From Idiomarinaceae bacterium (lineage in GTDB: Bacteria > Pseudomonadota > Gammaproteobacteria > Enterobacterales > Alteromonadaceae): DNA of 64,000 nucleotides. Numbering within the stretch: position 1 is the first letter of the stretch; each line of letters opens with the position of its first letter. The notes under the pieces are model-generated. The model saw only the letters and a program-made list of their open reading frames with translations, searched no databases and was not told the origin of the DNA. This document shows positions 32,426 to 41,138 of this stretch, in pieces. The DNA lies in assembly GCA_002685255.1 (NCBI GenBank), contig NYWU01000033.1, positions 124,001 to 188,000 on the forward strand. The letters run 5' to 3'. A program made the position numbers and the translations under genes.

Positions 32426-32926
32426 ATGACAAAGATCGTTTTCAATCATGGCAAAGAAAGTGGCCCTTGGGGGCATAAAATCGAGGCGCTCGCGAAGGTT
32501 GCAAAAAGTCGAAACTTTGCGGTAGACAGCATTGATTACCAAGATCAAATGGACCCAGATGACCGAGCGGATCGTTTGACTCAATACCTAAATGACGATG
32601 AGGGTGACCACGTTATCTTAGTCGGTTCGAGTATGGGCGGATACGTTGCGCTAGCGAATAGTCAGCATAGCAAAGTCAGGGGGTGCTTTGTGATGGCTCC
32701 TGCGCTGTATATGGGCGGTAAAGTTGACTTCGATAGATTGCACCCAAACGGACCTGTGAGTGTGGTCCATGGGTGGCAAGACGATATTGTTAACTGGCAA
32801 AACAGTGTTAAGTTTTGTCAGCGCATTGCCGCTGAATTGCATTTAATTGACGATGATCATCGACTCATCAACCGTCTTGACGTCGTCGTGCGCGACTTTA
32901 TTCTGTTTTTGGAGAGTATGGCATGA
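32426..32926 (+). CDS. Small alpha/beta-hydrolase
   Basis: The 166-residue protein has a compact alpha/beta-hydrolase core: a first strand with NHGKESGPWGHK (oxyanion-type loop), the nucleophile elbow GSSMGG (VILVGSSMGGYVAL), a candidate acid in HGWQDDIV and a late His in DDDHRLINR. This gives a plausible Ser-Asp-His triad. Substrate unknown. Its last four bases overlap the start of the HIT protein gene (ATGA), so the two are translationally coupled and head a run of five same-strand genes leading to the phytochrome. Confidence 0.85.
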   Translation: MTKIVFNHGKESGPWGHKIEALAKVAKSRNFAVDSIDYQDQMDPDDRADRLTQYLNDDEGDHVILVGSSMGGYVALANSQHSKVRGCFVMAPALYMGGKVDFDRLHPNGPVSVVHGWQDDIVNWQNSVKFCQRIAAELHLIDDDHRLINRLDVVVRDFILFLESMA

Positions 32927-33342
32927 GCGACTTTGTACTCGATACGCGTCTAGCTACCGACTCGATTTTGCTGGCGCGCGGGCCGCTGTCACAACTGCGT
33001 TTAATGAAAGCAGCCGACTGTGTTTGGTTTTTGCTAGTACCCGAGCACAACGACGTGACTGAAATCACCCAGCTATCCGAGGGGGACCAGTTTAATCTTT
33101 GGAAAGAAAGCCAAGCCTTAAGTGAGTGGTTATTACAATATTATCCCGAGTGTAAGTTAAATATTGCTGCGATAGGGAATGTCGTGAGCCAACTTCACGT
33201 CCATCATGTTGTTCGCTTTCCTACGGATCCGTTTTGGCCAGCACCTATCTGGGGTCAGAAAATGAGTCGCTTTCATTCGGAGGAGCAGGTTGAGGCGATA
33301 CGTTCAGGCTTGAGCGACTGTTCTAAATTTATTTTGGTTTGA
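32923..33342 (+). CDS. HIT-domain nucleotide hydrolase-like protein
   Basis: The 139-residue protein shows a histidine-triad-like motif, QLHVHHVVRF, in the second half, preceded by NIAAIGNVVSQ. This spacing is that of the Ap4A hydrolase/GalT-like branch of HIT proteins rather than HinT. It is expected to hydrolyse or transfer nucleotide phosphates, substrate unknown. It overlaps the alpha/beta-hydrolase gene by four bases and ends 37 bases before the heme oxygenase gene. Confidence 0.88.
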   Translation: MSDFVLDTRLATDSILLARGPLSQLRLMKAADCVWFLLVPEHNDVTEITQLSEGDQFNLWKESQALSEWLLQYYPECKLNIAAIGNVVSQLHVHHVVRFPTDPFWPAPIWGQKMSRFHSEEQVEAIRSGLSDCSKFILV

Positions 33343-33379: not shown

Positions 33380-33979
33380 ATGAAAAAGCACTCTGCGTTG
33401 ATACATATGAAGCAAGCAACCGAAAACGCTCACCGAGCGGCGGAGCAGACGGGGTTAATGCATCCCCTGATGCGAGCTGATGTGAGCGTAGATGATTACT
33501 TGCATGCGCTCAATGGGCTTTATCATTGGTTGGATAAATACGAAGTATGCTTGCAAACTTGGTTACCTAAGCAGACGGAGCGTTCGGGGGATTATTATTA
33601 TCAGCCTCGTACCAGCCATATTGTCAGTGACATTCATGCGTTAGGTGGGTTTACGCCGCCGCCGCAAATACATCATGAGCAAGCTGTATCGACATACCAA
33701 GCTCTAGGTTATGCCTATGTCATCGAAGGCAGCACTCAGGGCGGACGCATGCTCAAGCAGAGACTGGAGAATGTCTTGGCGCTTGATGACAGAGCAACAA
33801 ATTATTTTAGTTTTTATCAGCAGGGTAACTGGCAACGATTCATTCGTGGGTTCGAGCATTTGTCACTTACTGATGCACAACTTCAGGAAATGACAAACGC
33901 TGCACTCAGCGCATTTCGCTCATTCACAGATGTTGCAGAGCAAGTCGAGCAACGTTTTGGCTCAAAAGTAGCTTATTAA
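33380..33979 (+). CDS. bphO: Biliverdin-producing heme oxygenase (BphO type)
   Basis: The 199-residue protein shows the heme oxygenase pattern: proximal His18 in ATENAHRAAE and the distal-helix segment GYAYVIEGSTQGGR. Heme oxygenase opens heme to biliverdin, CO and iron, using reduced donors. It lies directly before the bacteriophytochrome gene (17-base gap), the usual bphO-bphP layout, so its product is expected to supply the chromophore. The sequence is divergent from HemO/PigA-type heme-iron enzymes and there are no heme-uptake genes nearby, which favours the photoreceptor role. Confidence 0.88.
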   Translation: MKKHSALIHMKQATENAHRAAEQTGLMHPLMRADVSVDDYLHALNGLYHWLDKYEVCLQTWLPKQTERSGDYYYQPRTSHIVSDIHALGGFTPPPQIHHEQAVSTYQALGYAYVIEGSTQGGRMLKQRLENVLALDDRATNYFSFYQQGNWQRFIRGFEHLSLTDAQLQEMTNAALSAFRSFTDVAEQVEQRFGSKVAY

Positions 33980-33996
33980 ATATCTAGGTGGTGTTC

Positions 33997-36063
33997 GTGC
34001 CTGAAAGTAATTCGGTTTCATATCAACAGGCCATGGAAAACTGTGCCAGAGAGCCCGTGCATGCACCACAGTGTGTGCAGTCGATTGGTTGCTTACTCGC
34101 CATTGACATAAAGGGTGAGCATATTGTTGCGGTAAGCGAAAACAGTGAAGCAATATTACGTCGTTCTGTTAACGAATTAATGGAAAAGCGCTTGGATGAG
34201 TGCATGTCGGATGATTTTATCAGTCAGTTTAGCGACGCGAGGCAACGATTAAAGAATGGCTCAGAGCACGAGATTCTGGCATGGTCCGACGGCCAGCAGG
34301 ATTTTTTTTCGCGAGTTTACTTTAGTCAATCCTGGCTGGTGATTGAGACAGAACCTGACAGTGCAACGTCGGATTTGAAACGCTCATGTTACTTTGATAG
34401 AGCGCTGCTTGATATTTCAAACGCTAAAAATGTCGAGCAAACAATGCAAAAGCTGTGTCAGGCAATTGCTGAGTTAAGCGGTTACGAGCGTGTTTTAGTG
34501 TATAAATTCGACGATGACTGGAATGGGCGAGTGGTTTGCGAGCACACTGCTTGCGAGGCCATTGAACAATACATTGGACTCAGTTTTCCGGCGAGCGATA
34601 TCCCAAGCCAAGTGCGTGAACTGTATCGAGTTAACCCGATTCGCTATATCGCTGATGTAGACACCGAGGATGCGATGATCCGTTACGCCGACTCACTCTC
34701 GCCAACGCGGCTCGATTTGTCGCTCGGAACACTCCGTGGCAAATCGCCCATTCATACAGAATATATGAAAAATATGGGATTACAGCGCTCAATGTCGGTC
34801 GCTGTGTTTGATCAGAGCCAGCTTTGGGGTTTGGTTTCCTGTCATGGCGTGTCAGCGCAGCAATTGTCGTATTCGACACGACTCAACATTCATTCGCTAG
34901 TAAAACTAGCCGAGCAGCGTTTGATGCTCCATAAACAATTTGAAGCCGACCGTTTCTTTGATCGCGTTGAGGAAAGTCGCAAAGCGCTTCTCGATCGTAA
35001 ACGCGAAATTAAATCGCCGCAGCATCTTTTAGAAGACGAAGGTGACTATTGGTTGAAACTGTTTGAAGCCACTGCGGTGGCATTGATCACGACTCAAACT
35101 CATCGCGTGGTCGGTGACGAAATTGATGTATCAACGCTACAAAAAGTTAGGGTCTGGCTGAACGAGAACCATGGTGTTACCGGGCTGTTTACCGAACGCG
35201 ACTGTCGCTTATCTGAACTGAGGCAAGCGATTCCTGAACTTCCTTATTGCGGCGTGCTTGCGGTTTCAATGCCCGTTGATAAACGTAACCAAGGTTGGTT
35301 GGTATTTTTCCGACAACAAGAAACTGAAGTGTTTCGTTGGGCGGGTAGTTTAGAAAAAGGGGACGTACGTGAGTACCAAGGGCGGCAAGTACTTTCGCCG
35401 CGAAACTCTTTCAAGCAATGGCAGCAAGACGTGGATGGCTATGCACCCGTATGGACAGAGATTCAGGTTGAAGCGGCTAAAACGCTCGCAGAAGATCTGG
35501 CCATCGGAGCGTCTGCTTTCCAAATTGAAAAGTTGAATCAAGAACTAACGGAAGCGAATGAGCGTCTGGAGCATCTGGTGCACACCGATGCGCTCACGCA
35601 AGTTTGGAACCGTTATCATATGGAACAAACCTTAGAAGAAGAAGTAAAACGGTGTGAGCGTCATGGTAGAGACCTTTCCGTTATTCTATTAGACATCGAT
35701 CACTTTAAACGTGTTAATGACGACTACGGTCATGATGTGGGTGATCATGTACTTAAACTTATCAGTGAGGCGTTGGACAAGTGGTTACGCAGTAGCGATG
35801 TGTTTGGCCGTTGGGGCGGCGAAGAGTTTTTAATCATAGCCCCAGAAACTGATCTTGAGAGTGCGGGTCAACTGGCTGAGCGATTACGACGGCGATTAGC
35901 GAATCTACAATTTGACAAAGTTGGTCAAGTCACGGCAAGCTTTGGCGTAGCCCAACTGTCGCGCGCTGAAAGTCGTAACAGTTTGGTTAAACGCGCTGAC
36001 AACGCGTTATACCAAGTCAAAGAGTCTGGACGGAACAGTGTGGAGGTCTCGCCAGGCAAATAA
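33997..36063 (+). CDS. Bacteriophytochrome-diguanylate cyclase (PAS-GAF-PHY-GGDEF)
   Basis: With the GTG at 33997 (five bases after AGGTGG) the protein has 688 residues. The N-terminal Cys16 in NCAREPVHAPQCVQ is the biliverdin attachment site of bacteriophytochromes. The GAF domain has PASDIP (198-203) and SPIHTEY with the conserved His (253); the PHY tongue has PRNSF (468-472). A helical linker (~505-530) leads to a GGDEF domain with GGEEF (607-611), and the product-inhibition I-site RSSD (598-601) is intact. So red/far-red light probably controls c-di-GMP synthesis. There is no histidine kinase module. Upstream in-frame GTG codons at 33988 and 33991 are alternatives. The Fic-like gene follows 15 bases later. 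Confidence 0.94.
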   Translation: MPESNSVSYQQAMENCAREPVHAPQCVQSIGCLLAIDIKGEHIVAVSENSEAILRRSVNELMEKRLDECMSDDFISQFSDARQRLKNGSEHEILAWSDGQQDFFSRVYFSQSWLVIETEPDSATSDLKRSCYFDRALLDISNAKNVEQTMQKLCQAIAELSGYERVLVYKFDDDWNGRVVCEHTACEAIEQYIGLSFPASDIPSQVRELYRVNPIRYIADVDTEDAMIRYADSLSPTRLDLSLGTLRGKSPIHTEYMKNMGLQRSMSVAVFDQSQLWGLVSCHGVSAQQLSYSTRLNIHSLVKLAEQRLMLHKQFEADRFFDRVEESRKALLDRKREIKSPQHLLEDEGDYWLKLFEATAVALITTQTHRVVGDEIDVSTLQKVRVWLNENHGVTGLFTERDCRLSELRQAIPELPYCGVLAVSMPVDKRNQGWLVFFRQQETEVFRWAGSLEKGDVREYQGRQVLSPRNSFKQWQQDVDGYAPVWTEIQVEAAKTLAEDLAIGASAFQIEKLNQELTEANERLEHLVHTDALTQVWNRYHMEQTLEEEVKRCERHGRDLSVILLDIDHFKRVNDDYGHDVGDHVLKLISEALDKWLRSSDVFGRWGGEEFLIIAPETDLESAGQLAERLRRRLANLQFDKVGQVTASFGVAQLSRAESRNSLVKRADNALYQVKESGRNSVEVSPGK

Positions 36064-36078
36064 TAAAAGGAATAACAC

Positions 36079-37068
36079 ATGTGGCCTCAACTTGAGTGGT
36101 CAACCCGTTCTGAGCTTTTAAACCTTGCCGAACAGGCAGGGCGGATCATCGCTCAATTTGAATCGGTTGAGGTCAATAGTGTAACGGCTCAATCGTGGCT
36201 GAATGAAAAGCAGGCAGCCAGTATTGAGTGCGAAAATTTAAATGCCCACCGCATTAACCTCTCGGCACTGTATGATCATATCGACCTCTGGGACCCGCTA
36301 AACGAGCAGGCGTTAAAAAAAGCACACCGGCAATTGATGCTCAACTTGAGTATGCGTGCAGGTCAGTACCGCGGCACTTCAGTCGCTATCTATCATCACG
36401 GCCGTAATATTTATGCTTCACCACCCGCCACGGGGATCGCACGAACACTCAGCGAATTATTTACTGAACTCAATGCCGACCATTGTCATCCACTGTATCG
36501 CGCTGCATTGTTTTTTGATGTCTTTGAAAGTTGGCAACCGTTTGCCGAAGCGAATGGGTGCATCACACGATTCTGGCTTACCTTATTGATGCGTTCTTGG
36601 CACCCACTTTTTCAATGGCTCAATATTGAGCAAAATTGGCTGGCATCAATAGATAAGCTGGCAGAAGCGCGACAGGTTGAGCGCAATGAGCGCTCTGAGG
36701 CGTTTATCCTGTGGCTAACCGGAGTACTCCGAACCAGTATGAGTGAACTTGCGCAGAAATTAACGAACTGCAGTGAGCAACCAGGGGCTGATGCGCAAAA
36801 AGGTTCGGATAAGTTTTCGGATGTGTGTTCGGTGAAAGGTTCGGAAAAGTGGTCTACGGCCCGCAAAGTACTGTTTCTAGTCAATAAAGAACGGGGTATT
36901 AGCGCGCAACGTATTGCCGAACTGTTGGGCTTGAGTTCGAGAGCCGTCGAGAAGCAGTTTGCCCGACTCAAGCAACAGGGTAAGCTCGAACGCGTGGGCA
37001 GTCCACGAGGCGGTTATTGGCGCGTTATGGTTTCTCCGTCGCAACAGTTATCGTTACCGGAATGCTAA
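36079..37068 (+). CDS. Degenerate Fic-domain protein with C-terminal winged helix
   Basis: The 329-residue protein begins like DUF4172-type Fic proteins (WPQLEWSTRSELL; ASIECENLNAHRIN). A Fic core is recognisable in IYASPPATGIARTLSELFTEL and HPLYRAALFFDVFESW, but the catalytic HPFxxGNGR reads QPFAEANGC (residues 153-161): the catalytic His is Gln, a Gly is Ala and the final Arg is Cys. AMP transfer is therefore unlikely. Residues ~240-262 hold a Ser/Lys-rich linker, and residues ~263-318 a winged helix-turn-helix (ISAQRIAELLGLSSRAVEKQFARLKQQGKL). It lies 15 bases after the phytochrome gene and overlaps the convergent nuclease gene by 44 bases. Likely a DNA-binding regulator that kept the Fic fold; target unknown. 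Confidence 0.8.
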   Translation: MWPQLEWSTRSELLNLAEQAGRIIAQFESVEVNSVTAQSWLNEKQAASIECENLNAHRINLSALYDHIDLWDPLNEQALKKAHRQLMLNLSMRAGQYRGTSVAIYHHGRNIYASPPATGIARTLSELFTELNADHCHPLYRAALFFDVFESWQPFAEANGCITRFWLTLLMRSWHPLFQWLNIEQNWLASIDKLAEARQVERNERSEAFILWLTGVLRTSMSELAQKLTNCSEQPGADAQKGSDKFSDVCSVKGSEKWSTARKVLFLVNKERGISAQRIAELLGLSSRAVEKQFARLKQQGKLERVGSPRGGYWRVMVSPSQQLSLPEC

Positions 37069-38407
37069 ACTGCTGTCGTATTTTTTCAGCCAAGGTATGT
37101 TGCGCTGGCGCTGAGCCATGCACCAAACGAACCGCTTGGACGGGGAATGCAGCACCGCCAATGAACGCGAGTAATTCTTCTTGATCAGCATGGGCGGAGT
37201 AACCGGTGAGCGTATATACCTGAGCATTTACTTTTCTTTGTTGTTGGTTGATAGTCACTGATTGGCCCGCAGCCGCTTGTTGAATGTGTTCACCCAGCGT
37301 CCCTTGTGCTTGGTAACCCACAAACAAAACATCAGTGCGAGGATCTTCTATCAACGCATCGAGATAGTTAATAATTCGCCCACCGGTACACATGCCTGAG
37401 CCTGCAATAACAATCACTGGCTCAGCAGTGGATTTGAGACGGTTTACTAAAGCGAGGTGTAAGCTATGCTCATCCACTGGGTGCGCGTGGCTAAAGTCTA
37501 ACGGATGTCGTCCATTAGCTTGGCGAGAACGGCTGGTTGCATCCCATAGCGCTTCGTGACGCTGGTAGATATCAGTTACTTTGTTTGCCATCGGTGAATC
37601 GATAACAATCTCGGGAAACTCGGTGTCCTTTGAAGACGCGTGTTGGTGCCAAATTTGTTCAAACTCATAGAGCAGCTCTTGTGTTCGACCAATGCTAAAT
37701 GCAGGAATCAAAATGGCGCCACCATCGACAACAGCACGTTTTATAATCGACTCGAGTTGTTGCGTTCGTTGACTGCGGTCACCATGCGAGCGATCCCCGT
37801 AAGTACTCTCTAAAACAAGTAAATCAGCGCGTTCAAGCGGTGTTGGATCGTTTATAAGAGGTGAGTTGCGGCAGCCCAAGTCGCCGGAAAACACAACACG
37901 TTTATGCAACGGCTTAATATCAAAACAGAGATAAGATGACCCCAGTATGTGGCCTGCCTCCTCGAACGTGACGCTAAGTGAGGGTAATACATCCAACGTT
38001 TGACCATATGCACAAATGACCACATGCCGCGCAAGCAATGTGTTAAATGCTGCGAGTGCGCTTTCGTCGCGGATGCCCGCGAGTTGCAGAGAGTCGCCCA
38101 GCACCAATTGCATTAATGCAAGTGAGGCTGCCGTACAGTAAATCGGGCCACGATAGCCCAGCGCGAGCAACTGCGGTAAACGGCCGACATGATCGAGGTG
38201 TGCATGAGTAATAAACACAGCCGCCAAGCTATCGACATCGACATACGGCGTTAAGTCATCCTCTTGCGTGATACCCTGAAACGCACCGCAGTCGATCATC
38301 ACCGTTTGTCGCGCGTTTAAATGCCACAAGTGACACGAGCCTGTCACCTGCCAAGTGCCACCTAAATGCGTTAAACGGATTGGCCACTCGATGGATAGTT
38401 CACTCAC
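37025..38407 (-). CDS. Beta-CASP metallo-beta-lactamase-fold RNase
   Basis: The 460-residue protein has the metallo-beta-lactamase motif HAHLDHVGRLP, GHILGSS and FSGDLG, then a beta-CASP region (LESTYGDRSHGD, LIPAFSIGRTQELL, GSGMCTGGRI) and the C-terminal RNA-specificity segment with GYSAHADQ. This is the layout of CPSF73-like and bacterial YSH1-type ribonucleases that cut or trim RNA using two zinc ions in the cytosol. Its 3' end overlaps the pseudo-Fic gene by 44 bases; it is divergent from ctlX. Confidence 0.92.
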   Translation of the reverse strand: MSELSIEWPIRLTHLGGTWQVTGSCHLWHLNARQTVMIDCGAFQGITQEDDLTPYVDVDSLAAVFITHAHLDHVGRLPQLLALGYRGPIYCTAASLALMQLVLGDSLQLAGIRDESALAAFNTLLARHVVICAYGQTLDVLPSLSVTFEEAGHILGSSYLCFDIKPLHKRVVFSGDLGCRNSPLINDPTPLERADLLVLESTYGDRSHGDRSQRTQQLESIIKRAVVDGGAILIPAFSIGRTQELLYEFEQIWHQHASSKDTEFPEIVIDSPMANKVTDIYQRHEALWDATSRSRQANGRHPLDFSHAHPVDEHSLHLALVNRLKSTAEPVIVIAGSGMCTGGRIINYLDALIEDPRTDVLFVGYQAQGTLGEHIQQAAAGQSVTINQQQRKVNAQVYTLTGYSAHADQEELLAFIGGAAFPVQAVRLVHGSAPAQHTLAEKIRQQFSIPVTITVATEKP

Positions 38408-39494: not shown

Positions 39495-41138
39495 ATGGGC
39501 TCAAAGGCGATACCTTATTATTATTTGTGTGGCGCGCTCGTCGCGCTATTACTGACCTATATACTTCCCACCTGGCCATTAAAAATTGCCTTCGGTTGGA
39601 CCTGTATCGCCTTAGCGCTAATCGCCTCTGCTTATTGGTTGAACACCGCTCGATTGTTTCGTAAGAAAGCGAACGGACGTATTCCTTGGTACATACGTTG
39701 GTCATTGATCCCGTTCCTGATTGGTGTACGCGTTTATAACGCCATCGCACGTCGGCAAGATGATTTACCAGTGTTTCAAAAGGTCGCGGATGGAATCTAT
39801 GTAGGAAGACGCTTATTCAGCGGCGACCTGAAGGCGATCAAAGACGTGCCGATTAATGCGGTACTCGATGTCACGGCTGAATTTGATGCGCTTGACTGGT
39901 CGGCTGAACGCGCCGAGGTTAATTACTTAAACGTTCCGGTGCTTGACCATTTGGCGCCGTCTCACGAACAAATCCATCAAGCCTTGCAGTGGATCCACGA
40001 GCAACAACGGCAAGGCCACAATGTATTAATTCATTGCGCCTTGGGGCGTGGACGTTCAGTGTTTATGGCGGCCGCCTATTTACTGGCGCACAGTAATACG
40101 AAAAACATCGATGACGTGATGAAGAAAATCCAAGGTGCGCGTAAAGTTGCGCGATTAAATCATCAACAAAAGAAGGCACTGCAACAGTTTATCGATGAAC
40201 ACCAAGAGTTGATGATTAAGCGTGCGTACATTGTCGCTAATCCGGTATCCGGTGGCGGTAAATGGAGTGAATATGCACAGCCGCTTAAGGATACGCTCAC
40301 ACCGTATTTCGAGTTAACAGTGATTGAAACGAAAGAAGATAAAAACGGTACCGAATGTGCACGTGAGGCGCTTGAGCAGGGCGCTGAGTTGGTCATTGCT
40401 TGTGGCGGCGATGGTACACTGACTGAAGTGGCACGTGCGCTCATCGGTTATGATTGTAAGATGGCGATCGTACCCATGGGCACAGCAAATTCCTTGAGCC
40501 AGGTGCTATGGGGACTCAGTAGTAAACTGAGCCCAGTGGATGTCGCCTGCGAAACGATTATTGAGGGTCGCTGTAGGCAAATCGATTGTGGCTGGGTCAA
40601 TGAGCAATTGATGCTTTTGTGCGCTGGCGTGGGCTTCGAACAGCAAATGATTGAGCAGGCAGATCGCAGCGCCAAAGATAAGCTAGGTCAGTTAGCGTAT
40701 ATTCAAGGTTTATGGCGCGCACTGAGTGAAGATAAACAACTGCAGTTGCAAGTAACCATTGATGAGGGTGAAACCGAAACGTGGGAAACAGCCAGTTTGA
40801 TTGTTGCCAATGCGGCACCGATAACAACCTTGTTGGCACAGGGCGATGGTGAGCCCGTGATCGACGATGGCAAACTGGATGTAACGTGGCTCGATTCAGA
40901 GCAGGGTGAGAGTTCACCGGTAAAAAGCCTAATCGAGCTCTTGTACGCCAGTATTACCGAAGACCAAGTGGGGATGAATACCCATCACACACGCATAAAG
41001 CGTATTCACCTAGCACGCTGTGATGGTGAGCGCTTAGACTACGTCGTCGATGGCGAACCTTACTCAGCGGATGAGTTAGATATCAAGGTTGAAAAGCATG
41101 CACTGCAGATCTTGGTGCCTGATCGTATTGATTACTAG
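39495..41138 (+). CDS. Membrane-anchored dual-specificity phosphatase / diacylglycerol kinase-family fusion
   Basis: The 547-residue protein joins three parts. Residues ~8-80 hold two or three hydrophobic segments. Residues ~90-235 form a DSP-type phosphatase domain with the CX5R signature HCALGRGRS (Cys181, Arg187). Residues ~240-545 form a diacylglycerol/sphingosine-kinase-like catalytic domain with NPVSGGGK, GGDGT (304-308) and VPMGTANS. The fusion puts a cysteine phosphatase and a lipid-type kinase on one membrane protein, suggesting opposite or sequential action on a phosphorylated lipid; that reaction is inference. It starts seven bases after ctlX. Confidence 0.9.
   Translation: MGSKAIPYYYLCGALVALLLTYILPTWPLKIAFGWTCIALALIASAYWLNTARLFRKKANGRIPWYIRWSLIPFLIGVRVYNAIARRQDDLPVFQKVADGIYVGRRLFSGDLKAIKDVPINAVLDVTAEFDALDWSAERAEVNYLNVPVLDHLAPSHEQIHQALQWIHEQQRQGHNVLIHCALGRGRSVFMAAAYLLAHSNTKNIDDVMKKIQGARKVARLNHQQKKALQQFIDEHQELMIKRAYIVANPVSGGGKWSEYAQPLKDTLTPYFELTVIETKEDKNGTECAREALEQGAELVIACGGDGTLTEVARALIGYDCKMAIVPMGTANSLSQVLWGLSSKLSPVDVACETIIEGRCRQIDCGWVNEQLMLLCAGVGFEQQMIEQADRSAKDKLGQLAYIQGLWRALSEDKQLQLQVTIDEGETETWETASLIVANAAPITTLLAQGDGEPVIDDGKLDVTWLDSEQGESSPVKSLIELLYASITEDQVGMNTHHTRIKRIHLARCDGERLDYVVDGEPYSADELDIKVEKHALQILVPDRIDY

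What the first reader, a model, noticed from the sequence alone, without database searches (positions are those of the whole stretch)
33380..37068. Light-sensing operon: heme oxygenase, phytochrome-diguanylate cyclase, and a Fic-fold DNA-binding protein
Three same-strand genes with gaps of 17 and 15 bases encode a biliverdin-making heme oxygenase, a bacteriophytochrome with the chromophore Cys, PASDIP and PRxSF motifs joined to a GGEEF domain with an intact I-site, and a Fic-like protein with a winged helix. The first two are a known partnership. The third gene is not a known part of phytochrome systems that I recall. The tight spacing suggests it is regulated with the photoreceptor and may set expression of light- or c-di-GMP-dependent genes. 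The alpha/beta-hydrolase and HIT genes just upstream (32426-33342) may belong to the same transcript.
Basis: partly seen in the sequence, partly recalled or inferred. Interest (0 to 1): 0.68.

Follow-up and report, generated by a model that had tools for sequence, protein, structure and literature searches.

The report
Phytochrome operon beside a dead Fic
A marine bacterium's ordinary red-light sensor genes sit next to a DNA-binding-type protein built from an enzyme whose active site has been lost; relatives keep that protein after losing the light sensor, so it is probably not a dedicated light-sensing part.

Summary
The three genes are real and lie where stated. Heme oxygenase plus phytochrome-GGDEF is an ordinary PadC-type pair; best solved match IsPadC of Idiomarina sp. 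A28L. The third protein has a Fic fold and a winged helix, but its Fic motif is broken: QPFAEANGCITR replaces HPFx(D/E)GNGRxxR. Gln replaces the catalytic His in 17 of 17 Idiomarina copies and 0 of 15 aligned outside relatives: a conserved pseudo-Fic. The link to light is weak. All 9 held Idiomarina genomes with the phytochrome carry the pseudo-Fic directly downstream, but 8 more keep it at the same locus without one, two beside remnants of heme oxygenase and PadC; 4 of 4 PadC loci outside the genus lack it. In I. baltica the photoreceptor pair is far more divergent than the pseudo-Fic. Conservation has shifted from Fic core to winged helix, and a C-terminal QLxL tail is invariant in 17 of 17. 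Best reading: a non-enzymatic DNA-binding regulator of a hydrolase–HIT–pseudo-Fic locus in which heme oxygenase–PadC is optional; any light effect is indirect. Targets and function are untested.

The parts
32426..32926 (+). small alpha/beta hydrolase (UPF0227/YqiA-like), syntenic with the pseudo-Fic
   Evidence: upstream of the pseudo-Fic in 17 of 17 Idiomarina loci (for 16, window for one)
32923..33342 (+). HIT-family protein, overlaps the hydrolase by 4 bases
   Evidence: syntenic in 17 of 17
33380..33979 (+). heme oxygenase (biliverdin supply)
   Evidence: PF01126 53.8 bits
33988..36063 (+). PadC-type bacteriophytochrome-diguanylate cyclase (start may be GTG 33997)
   Evidence: best PDB match IsPadC 6et7, E 3.1e-122
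36079..37068 (+). pseudo-Fic with C-terminal winged helix
36535..36570 (+). degenerate Fic motif, residues 153-164, QPFAEANGCITR
36850..37029 (+). winged helix, residues 258-317, the most conserved region of the pseudo-Fic
37030..37065 (+). predicted disordered C-terminal tail with invariant Q323, L324, L326 (QLSLPE)
37025..38407 (-). metallo-beta-lactamase/beta-CASP RNase-type gene whose 3' end overlaps the pseudo-Fic 3' end by 44 bases; neighbour only

Best explanation
Heme oxygenase makes biliverdin for a PadC-type phytochrome that, like IsPadC, should make c-di-GMP in red light (inferred from the homologue). The third protein is a pseudo-Fic: a descendant of Fic AMP transferases with a winged helix that has lost the catalytic His, the GNGR Arg and about 20 residues before the Fic core, and has a conserved tail. 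It probably works without catalysis, as a DNA-binding regulator acting through its winged helix, with the Fic fold kept as scaffold or interaction surface. It belongs to a hydrolase-HIT-pseudo-Fic locus of Idiomarina; heme oxygenase-PadC is an optional cassette between HIT and pseudo-Fic, and light touches the pseudo-Fic at most through shared transcription. Shown here: anatomy, motif loss, predicted fold, distribution, photoreceptor loss in one lineage, conservation pattern. Inferred: DNA binding, absence of AMP transfer, any target.
For: PadC identity. Motif: Gln for the catalytic His in 17 of 17 Idiomarina copies, His in 15 of 15 aligned outside relatives. Fold: AlphaFold mean pLDDT 79.7, pTM 0.67; nearest chain 4rgl, Z 25.0, rmsd 2.6, 229 aligned. 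Maintained: no internal stop in 17 of 17; Ka/Ks 0.06-0.21 in the 8 of 10 pairs with finite Ks. Constraint shifted: mean pairwise identity 0.66 winged helix vs 0.50 Fic core in 17 pseudo-Fics, 0.39 vs 0.54 in 15 relatives. Independence from light: 8 genomes with pseudo-Fic and no phytochrome match, remnants beside an intact pseudo-Fic in G002 and G012, none at 4 of 4 PadC loci outside the genus, different histories in I. baltica.
Against: No DNA target was found. An inverted repeat GTAACC-N4..6-GGTTAC precedes the gene in 5 of 6 clade D genomes but is absent from the window; genome-wide counts in 8 genomes are 28 sites against 16 for the backward control, 4 against 3 in the window's genome. Every held PadC-bearing Idiomarina genome has the pseudo-Fic directly downstream (9 of 9), and in G003 and G017 the two genes overlap by one base, so translational coupling is possible. 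A broken motif does not prove lost activity: Campylobacter Fic2 with a degenerate motif is toxic, though it needs its His (PMC5651007, passages). The pair without PadC, G002/G012, has the highest Ka/Ks (0.205; 0.157 for the PadC-bearing sister pair G003/G017), so slight relaxation after loss is possible. The shift in constraint shrinks with four chosen sequences a side: 0.59 vs 0.38 and 0.50 vs 0.53.
Confidence: 0.6

Rival explanations
1. One reading: the Fic-winged-helix protein is the dedicated output regulator of the phytochrome, setting light- or c-di-GMP-dependent gene expression.
For: Same strand, 15-base gap in the window; 9 of 9 held PadC-bearing Idiomarina genomes have it directly downstream.
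Against: 8 further genomes keep it without a phytochrome match; photoreceptor remnants beside an intact pseudo-Fic in two; 4 of 4 PadC loci in other genera lack it; different histories in I. baltica.
Confidence: 0.12
2. The pseudo-Fic is tethered to the replication sliding clamp (DnaN) by its C-terminal QLSLP(E) / QLGLLQ tail and works on DNA behind the replisome, for instance as an adaptor or replication-linked regulator.
For: Q323, L324, L326 invariant in 17 of 17 in a tail predicted disordered; no other protein has QLxL in its last 15 residues among 61 mechanical ORFs of the window and 286 of 20 loci, all of 100 aa or more; Hda's clamp peptide PAQLSLPLYL binds with KD 0.38 uM (PMC11139829, passages); tail kept in ten genomes without the overlapping RNase gene, as QLSLP in six and QLGLL in four.
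Against: The canonical motif Q-phi-x-[LM]-[FL] or Q-phi-x-[LM]-x-[FL] is met in 4 of 17 (QLGLL); the window's QLSLPE has Pro and Glu in the hydrophobic positions. The genome's own Hda has QLTLAV, hydrophobic though not F/L at the sixth place. No complex could be modelled.
Confidence: 0.12
3. The protein is still an enzyme with altered chemistry, or a toxin-like Fic, despite the motif.
For: Asn159 is invariant; the last motif Arg is kept in 13 of 17; the Fic fold is predicted intact. Degenerate Fic2 of Campylobacter is toxic (PMC5651007, passages).
Against: Catalytic His is Gln and the GNGR Arg is lost in 17 of 17; Campylobacter Fic2 needs its His. The assembly holds no second Fic match at E <= 0.01.
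Confidence: 0.1
4. A passenger gene on the way to loss.
For: 28-35% identity of the window copy to other clades; no full-length copy in 2 of 19 genomes.
Against: No internal stop in 17 of 17 and Ka/Ks well below 1 in 8 of 10 pairs, two saturated.
Confidence: 0.05

Closest known systems
IsPadC, phytochrome-activated diguanylate cyclase of Idiomarina sp. A28L (PDB 5llw, 6et7)
   Same: PAS-GAF-PHY-GGDEF aligned from residue 14 to 685 with E 3.1e-122; chromophore Cys, PASDIP, PRxSF and GGEEF present
   Different: Divergent sequence; the gene neighbourhood of IsPadC itself was not found here. Photochemistry and activity of the window protein are untested
Dde_2494, a Fic family protein of Desulfovibrio (4rgl)
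   Same: Fic fold: Z 25.0, rmsd 2.6, 229 aligned, residues 1-230
   Different: 4rgl has HPFADGNGRMGR (alignment); catalytic His and GNGR Arg lost here
Fic proteins with C-terminal winged helix of Stutzerimonas, Pseudomonas, Sulfurovum and others (15 aligned)
   Same: Order Fic then winged helix; RAVEK recognition-helix sequence in 9 of 15
   Different: His kept in 15 of 15; about 20 residues before the core present there and missing here; no QLxL tail in 15 of 15; no hydrolase, HIT, heme oxygenase or phytochrome neighbour in 16 loci
SoFic, Shewanella Fic adenylyltransferase (3eqx/3zcn)
   Same: Fic fold: 3eqx_B Z 20.5, rmsd 3.2, 237 aligned; 3zcn_A Z 20.4, rmsd 3.3, 240 aligned
   Different: Named protein adenylyltransferase by NCBIfam; that model gives 14.6 bits here against a cut-off of 550
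Bartonella BepC
   Same: Fic domain with non-canonical motif and no enzymatic activity found, acting by binding a partner (PMC8401265, passages)
   Different: An injected effector that still has its catalytic His; no winged helix (recalled)

Membership tests
PadC phytochrome-diguanylate cyclase | PAS-GAF-PHY sensory module joined to a GGDEF domain | tested here: met
   read in the translation; Cys aligned to IsPadC
PadC phytochrome-diguanylate cyclase | red-light stimulated c-di-GMP synthesis | not testable with these tools
   needs protein and light
Fic AMP transferase | Fic fold | tested here: met
   PF02661 41.0 bits; 4rgl Z 25.0, rmsd 2.6, 229 aligned
Fic AMP transferase | motif HPFx(D/E)GNGRxxR with catalytic His | tested here: not met
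   QPFAEANGCITR; Gln in 17 of 17. Motif definition from PMC8401265, passages
Class II Fic | N-terminal inhibitory motif (S/T)xxxE(G/N) (recalled) | tested here: inconclusive
   window has SIECEN near the aligned place; other clades vary there
DUF4172 (PF13776) Fic | match to PF13776 | tested here: not met
   0 matches in the genome at E <= 0.001
Winged-helix DNA-binding protein | winged-helix domain over family cut-off | tested here: met
   HTH_11 29.8 (cut-off 25), HTH_24 27.2 (cut-off 21.9)
Winged-helix DNA-binding protein | sequence-specific DNA binding | not testable with these tools
   needs protein and DNA
Sliding-clamp-binding protein | motif Q-phi-x-[LM]-[FL] or Q-phi-x-[LM]-x-[FL] | tested here: not met
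   window QLSLPE fails at both hydrophobic positions; 4 of 17 copies (QLGLL) meet it
Conserved phytochrome-operon partner | present beside PadC across genera and absent without it | tested here: not met
   0 of 4 PadC loci outside the genus; 8 genomes with it and no phytochrome match

The most novel reading that the evidence does not exclude
Idiomarina has turned an AMP transferase into a catalytically dead, clamp-tethered DNA-binding protein: the Fic domain became a scaffold, the winged helix the working end, and a short C-terminal tail docks it on the replication sliding clamp; in species that keep PadC its dose is tied to the photoreceptor operon, linking light and a replication-associated regulator.
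Probability: 0.08. Interest if true: 0.65.

Novelty: new variant of a known kind. Interest (0 to 1): 0.33.

Why it matters
Fic domains are mostly discussed as enzymes or toxins (my recollection of the field). A nearly genus-wide, selected, motif-broken Fic whose winged helix is its most conserved part would be a clear case of a Fic fold recruited for DNA-binding regulation. It is also a caution for operon-based inference: a gene found directly after the photoreceptor in every held genome of the genus that has one is still there where the photoreceptor is gone.

Tried and rejected
Phytochrome-dedicated role for the Fic-like protein: rejected as the best reading on gene distribution.

DUF4172 membership: no match.

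A regulon operator: the inverted repeat GTAACC-N4..6-GGTTAC lies just upstream of the pseudo-Fic start in clade D (exact in 5 of 6 genomes, near copy in G015). Genome-wide exact counts in 8 genomes were 2-4 sites each against 0-4 for the backward control, 28 against 16 in all, five of the 28 being the sites at this gene. The small excess was not followed, so a small regulon in clade D is not excluded; in the window's genome it is 4 against 3. The variable loop length and the place near the start codon fit an RNA hairpin as well as an operator.

Promoters and terminators: 5 and 6 sites against shuffle means of 6.3 and 5.8, uninformative.

Antitoxin for another Fic: the assembly (98.5% complete) holds no second Fic match.

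HIT protein as partner of an AMPylating Fic: none of 16 outside Fic loci has a HIT, hydrolase, heme oxygenase or phytochrome neighbour by tblastn; one (L070) has a GGDEF gene. Not pursued.

Trees: IQ-TREE failed on thread count; FastTree gave the same close species groups for pseudo-Fic and hydrolase+HIT, with differences at weakly supported deep nodes and in the placing of I. baltica.

The first AlphaFold model (17 rows, pLDDT 70.4, pTM 0.58) was superseded by the 32-row one. Of the 80 loci, 12 are Idiomarina and 15 outside loci match across the Fic region; the other 53, matching mainly the C-terminal part, were not examined. Of those 15, L069 (canonical motif) was left out of A2 because its mechanical start is far upstream; A2's fifteenth outside row is L053 from the genome search.

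A repeat search for island ends reached only 30 bases past the gene and missed the repeats in G005 and G016; repeated with 150 bases.

Papers: none in the library holds 'phytochrome' with 'Fic domain'; one holds 'bacteriophytochrome' with 'Fic', on silver nanoparticles, judged unrelated from the listing; one holds 'Idiomarina' with 'Fic family', on Rickettsia, likewise. The main text of PMC9587094 has no occurrence of 'Fic'.
Full report
WHAT IS THERE. Heme oxygenase (33380-33979) scores 53.8 bits to PF01126; the second protein carries PAS_2, GAF, PHY and GGDEF, all over cut-off; the third carries Fic (41.0 bits) and winged-helix domains (HTH_11 29.8, HTH_24 27.2 bits). Upstream, a small hydrolase (32426-32926) and a HIT protein (32923-33342) overlap by four bases, and 37 bases separate HIT from heme oxygenase. 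The pseudo-Fic 3' end overlaps the opposite-strand RNase-type gene 37025-38407 by 44 bases.

THE PHOTORECEPTOR PAIR IS ORDINARY. The best solved-structure match of the phytochrome is IsPadC (6et7), residues 14-685, E 3.1e-122. IsPadC is a red-light regulated diguanylate cyclase from Idiomarina sp. A28L (PMC6956517, passages; PMC9587094, passages). The window's genome belongs with Idiomarina: its pseudo-Fic is 95% identical to that of I. baltica and 93% to Idiomarina sp. MD25a. I equate G018 with I. baltica, G010 with I. fontislapidosi and G007 with I. abyssalis from equal contig lengths. That this PadC makes c-di-GMP in red light is inferred from the homologue.

THE THIRD PROTEIN IS A PSEUDO-FIC. 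I aligned 17 Idiomarina copies with 15 outside relatives. The motif HPFx(D/E)GNGRxxR reads QPFAEANGCITR here. Gln replaces the catalytic His in 17 of 17 Idiomarina copies; His is kept in 15 of 15 relatives, one of which (L066) has GKER in place of GNGR. The GNGR Arg is lost in 17 of 17; Asn159 is invariant; the last Arg is kept in 13 of 17 and is His in the other four. About 20 columns just before the Fic core are empty in all 17. The fold is predicted with mean pLDDT 79.7 and pTM 0.67; nearest chain 4rgl, Z 25.0, rmsd 2.6 over 229 residues. The assembly has no other Fic match.

IT IS MAINTAINED, AND CONSTRAINT HAS MOVED TO THE WINGED HELIX. No copy has an internal stop (17 of 17). Ka/Ks is 0.06-0.21 in the 8 of 10 pairs with finite Ks; two pairs are saturated. 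Mean pairwise identity by region is 0.66 for the winged helix and 0.50 for the Fic core in the 17 pseudo-Fics, against 0.39 and 0.54 in the 15 relatives. Fourteen relatives were found with peptide patterns from the winged helix, which should raise their winged-helix identity; on the other hand two rows lower it, L053 with a poorly matching C-terminus and L081, which ends early. The sets are not balanced: with four pseudo-Fic clade representatives the values are 0.59 and 0.38, and with four chosen relatives 0.50 and 0.53.

THE TAIL. After the wing all 17 copies end in a short tail with invariant Q323, L324 and L326: QLSLP in 13 (followed by E in 12, by AD in one) and QLGLLQ in 4, predicted disordered. 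None of the 15 relatives has it. No other ORF of 100 aa or more has QLxL in its last 15 residues among 61 in the window and 286 in 20 loci; the shuffled expectation for the window set, the pseudo-Fic included, was 0.48 proteins, so in one genome this would be unremarkable, and the weight lies in the 17-fold conservation, which holds also in ten genomes without the overlapping RNase gene. The tail resembles the clamp peptide of Hda, but the canonical definition (PMC11139829, passages) is met in 4 of 17 and not in the window. Clamp binding is a lead only.

THE LINK TO LIGHT IS WEAK. Of the 19 held genomes of the genus, 17 have the full pseudo-Fic; G013 has only a weak match (E 1.1e-7) elsewhere and G014 none. 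Nine, the window's included, match the phytochrome. In 9 of 9 of these the pseudo-Fic lies directly downstream; in 17 of 17 with the pseudo-Fic, hydrolase and HIT lie upstream at the same locus. Eight genomes have the pseudo-Fic and no phytochrome match at E <= 0.001. In two of these, G002 and G012, heme oxygenase remnants and about 75 bases of the PadC 3' end sit just before an intact pseudo-Fic (heme oxygenase is broken in G002 and cut short, as a 173-aa frame, in G012): the photoreceptor was lost and the pseudo-Fic stayed. For the other six I cannot tell loss from never having had it. Neither G013 nor G014 matches the phytochrome.

OUTSIDE THE GENUS. Of 295 family genomes drawn from a larger group, 11 match PadC at E <= 1e-100, 4 of them outside the genus; these 4 have a heme oxygenase beside PadC and no pseudo-Fic in the 15-18 kb fetched, and only weak matches or none elsewhere (best E 6e-11). 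Three further family genomes have weaker phytochrome matches; two of these loci were looked at and show no pseudo-Fic, the third was not.

DIFFERENT HISTORIES IN I. BALTICA. Against the window, DNA identity in I. baltica is 83-86% for the upstream genes through the hydrolase, 66-83% for HIT, heme oxygenase and PadC, then 91-95% for the pseudo-Fic and 92-96% for the three genes after it. In I. fontislapidosi (G010) all these genes are similarly divergent (66-80%), so the step is not a difference in rate. Either the photoreceptor segment or the pseudo-Fic-and-downstream block was exchanged by recombination; I cannot tell which, but the two did not travel together.

MECHANISM. I commit to a non-enzymatic DNA-binding regulator, from the loss of the active site, the winged helix as the most conserved part, and continued purifying selection. 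Targets are unknown; I found no operator. In clade D an inverted repeat precedes the gene, with no clear genome-wide enrichment. Where PadC is present the pseudo-Fic may be co-transcribed with it, so its dose may follow that operon; that is the extent of any light link supported here.

NOVELTY. The photoreceptor pair is a new member of a known kind. The pseudo-Fic is a new variant of the Fic-winged-helix kind. Fic domains with non-canonical motifs, including one without detected activity (BepC; PMC8401265, passages), are already in print. My searches showed no paper on this protein; they cover an open-licence library only, searches listed 25 of 118 and 10 of 22 papers, and most were judged from listings.

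CLADES. Clade letters follow the trees and alignments: A is the window's genome, G009, G010, G018; B is G001, G004, G006; C is G002, G003, G012, G017; D is G005, G007, G008, G011, G015, G016.

Noticed in passing
L049 (G003), L045 (G017), L042 (G005), L044 (G016), just after the pseudo-Fic: In these four genomes 47-58 bases next to the gene end recur 6.9-34.8 kb downstream, by position at tRNA-Pro(GGG) genes; in six other clade C/D genomes an intact tRNA-Pro(GGG) lies right after the gene. A phage-type integrase lies beside the gene in G017: islands inserted at this tRNA.
   Followed up: partly
Clade D loci L039, L041, L042, L043, L044 (near copy in L040), just before the pseudo-Fic start: Inverted repeat GTAACC-N4..6-GGTTAC between a GGAG-like site and the ATG: possible 5' hairpin or autoregulatory operator.
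   Followed up: partly
L036 (G018, I. baltica), HIT to PadC: Segment 66-83% identical to the window between flanks of 83-86% (upstream) and 91-96% (downstream): recombination at the locus.
   Followed up: partly
L044 5189-7102 and like-placed ORFs in 8 of 17 loci: A gene on the opposite strand sits between HIT and the pseudo-Fic or its heme oxygenase; it is a dCache-HAMP chemoreceptor in G016 and a shorter one (403 aa, no HAMP match) in G011; the other six, all 637 aa, were not scanned.
   Followed up: no
window 39495-41138: Dual-specificity phosphatase domain fused to a diacylglycerol-kinase-type domain.
   Followed up: no
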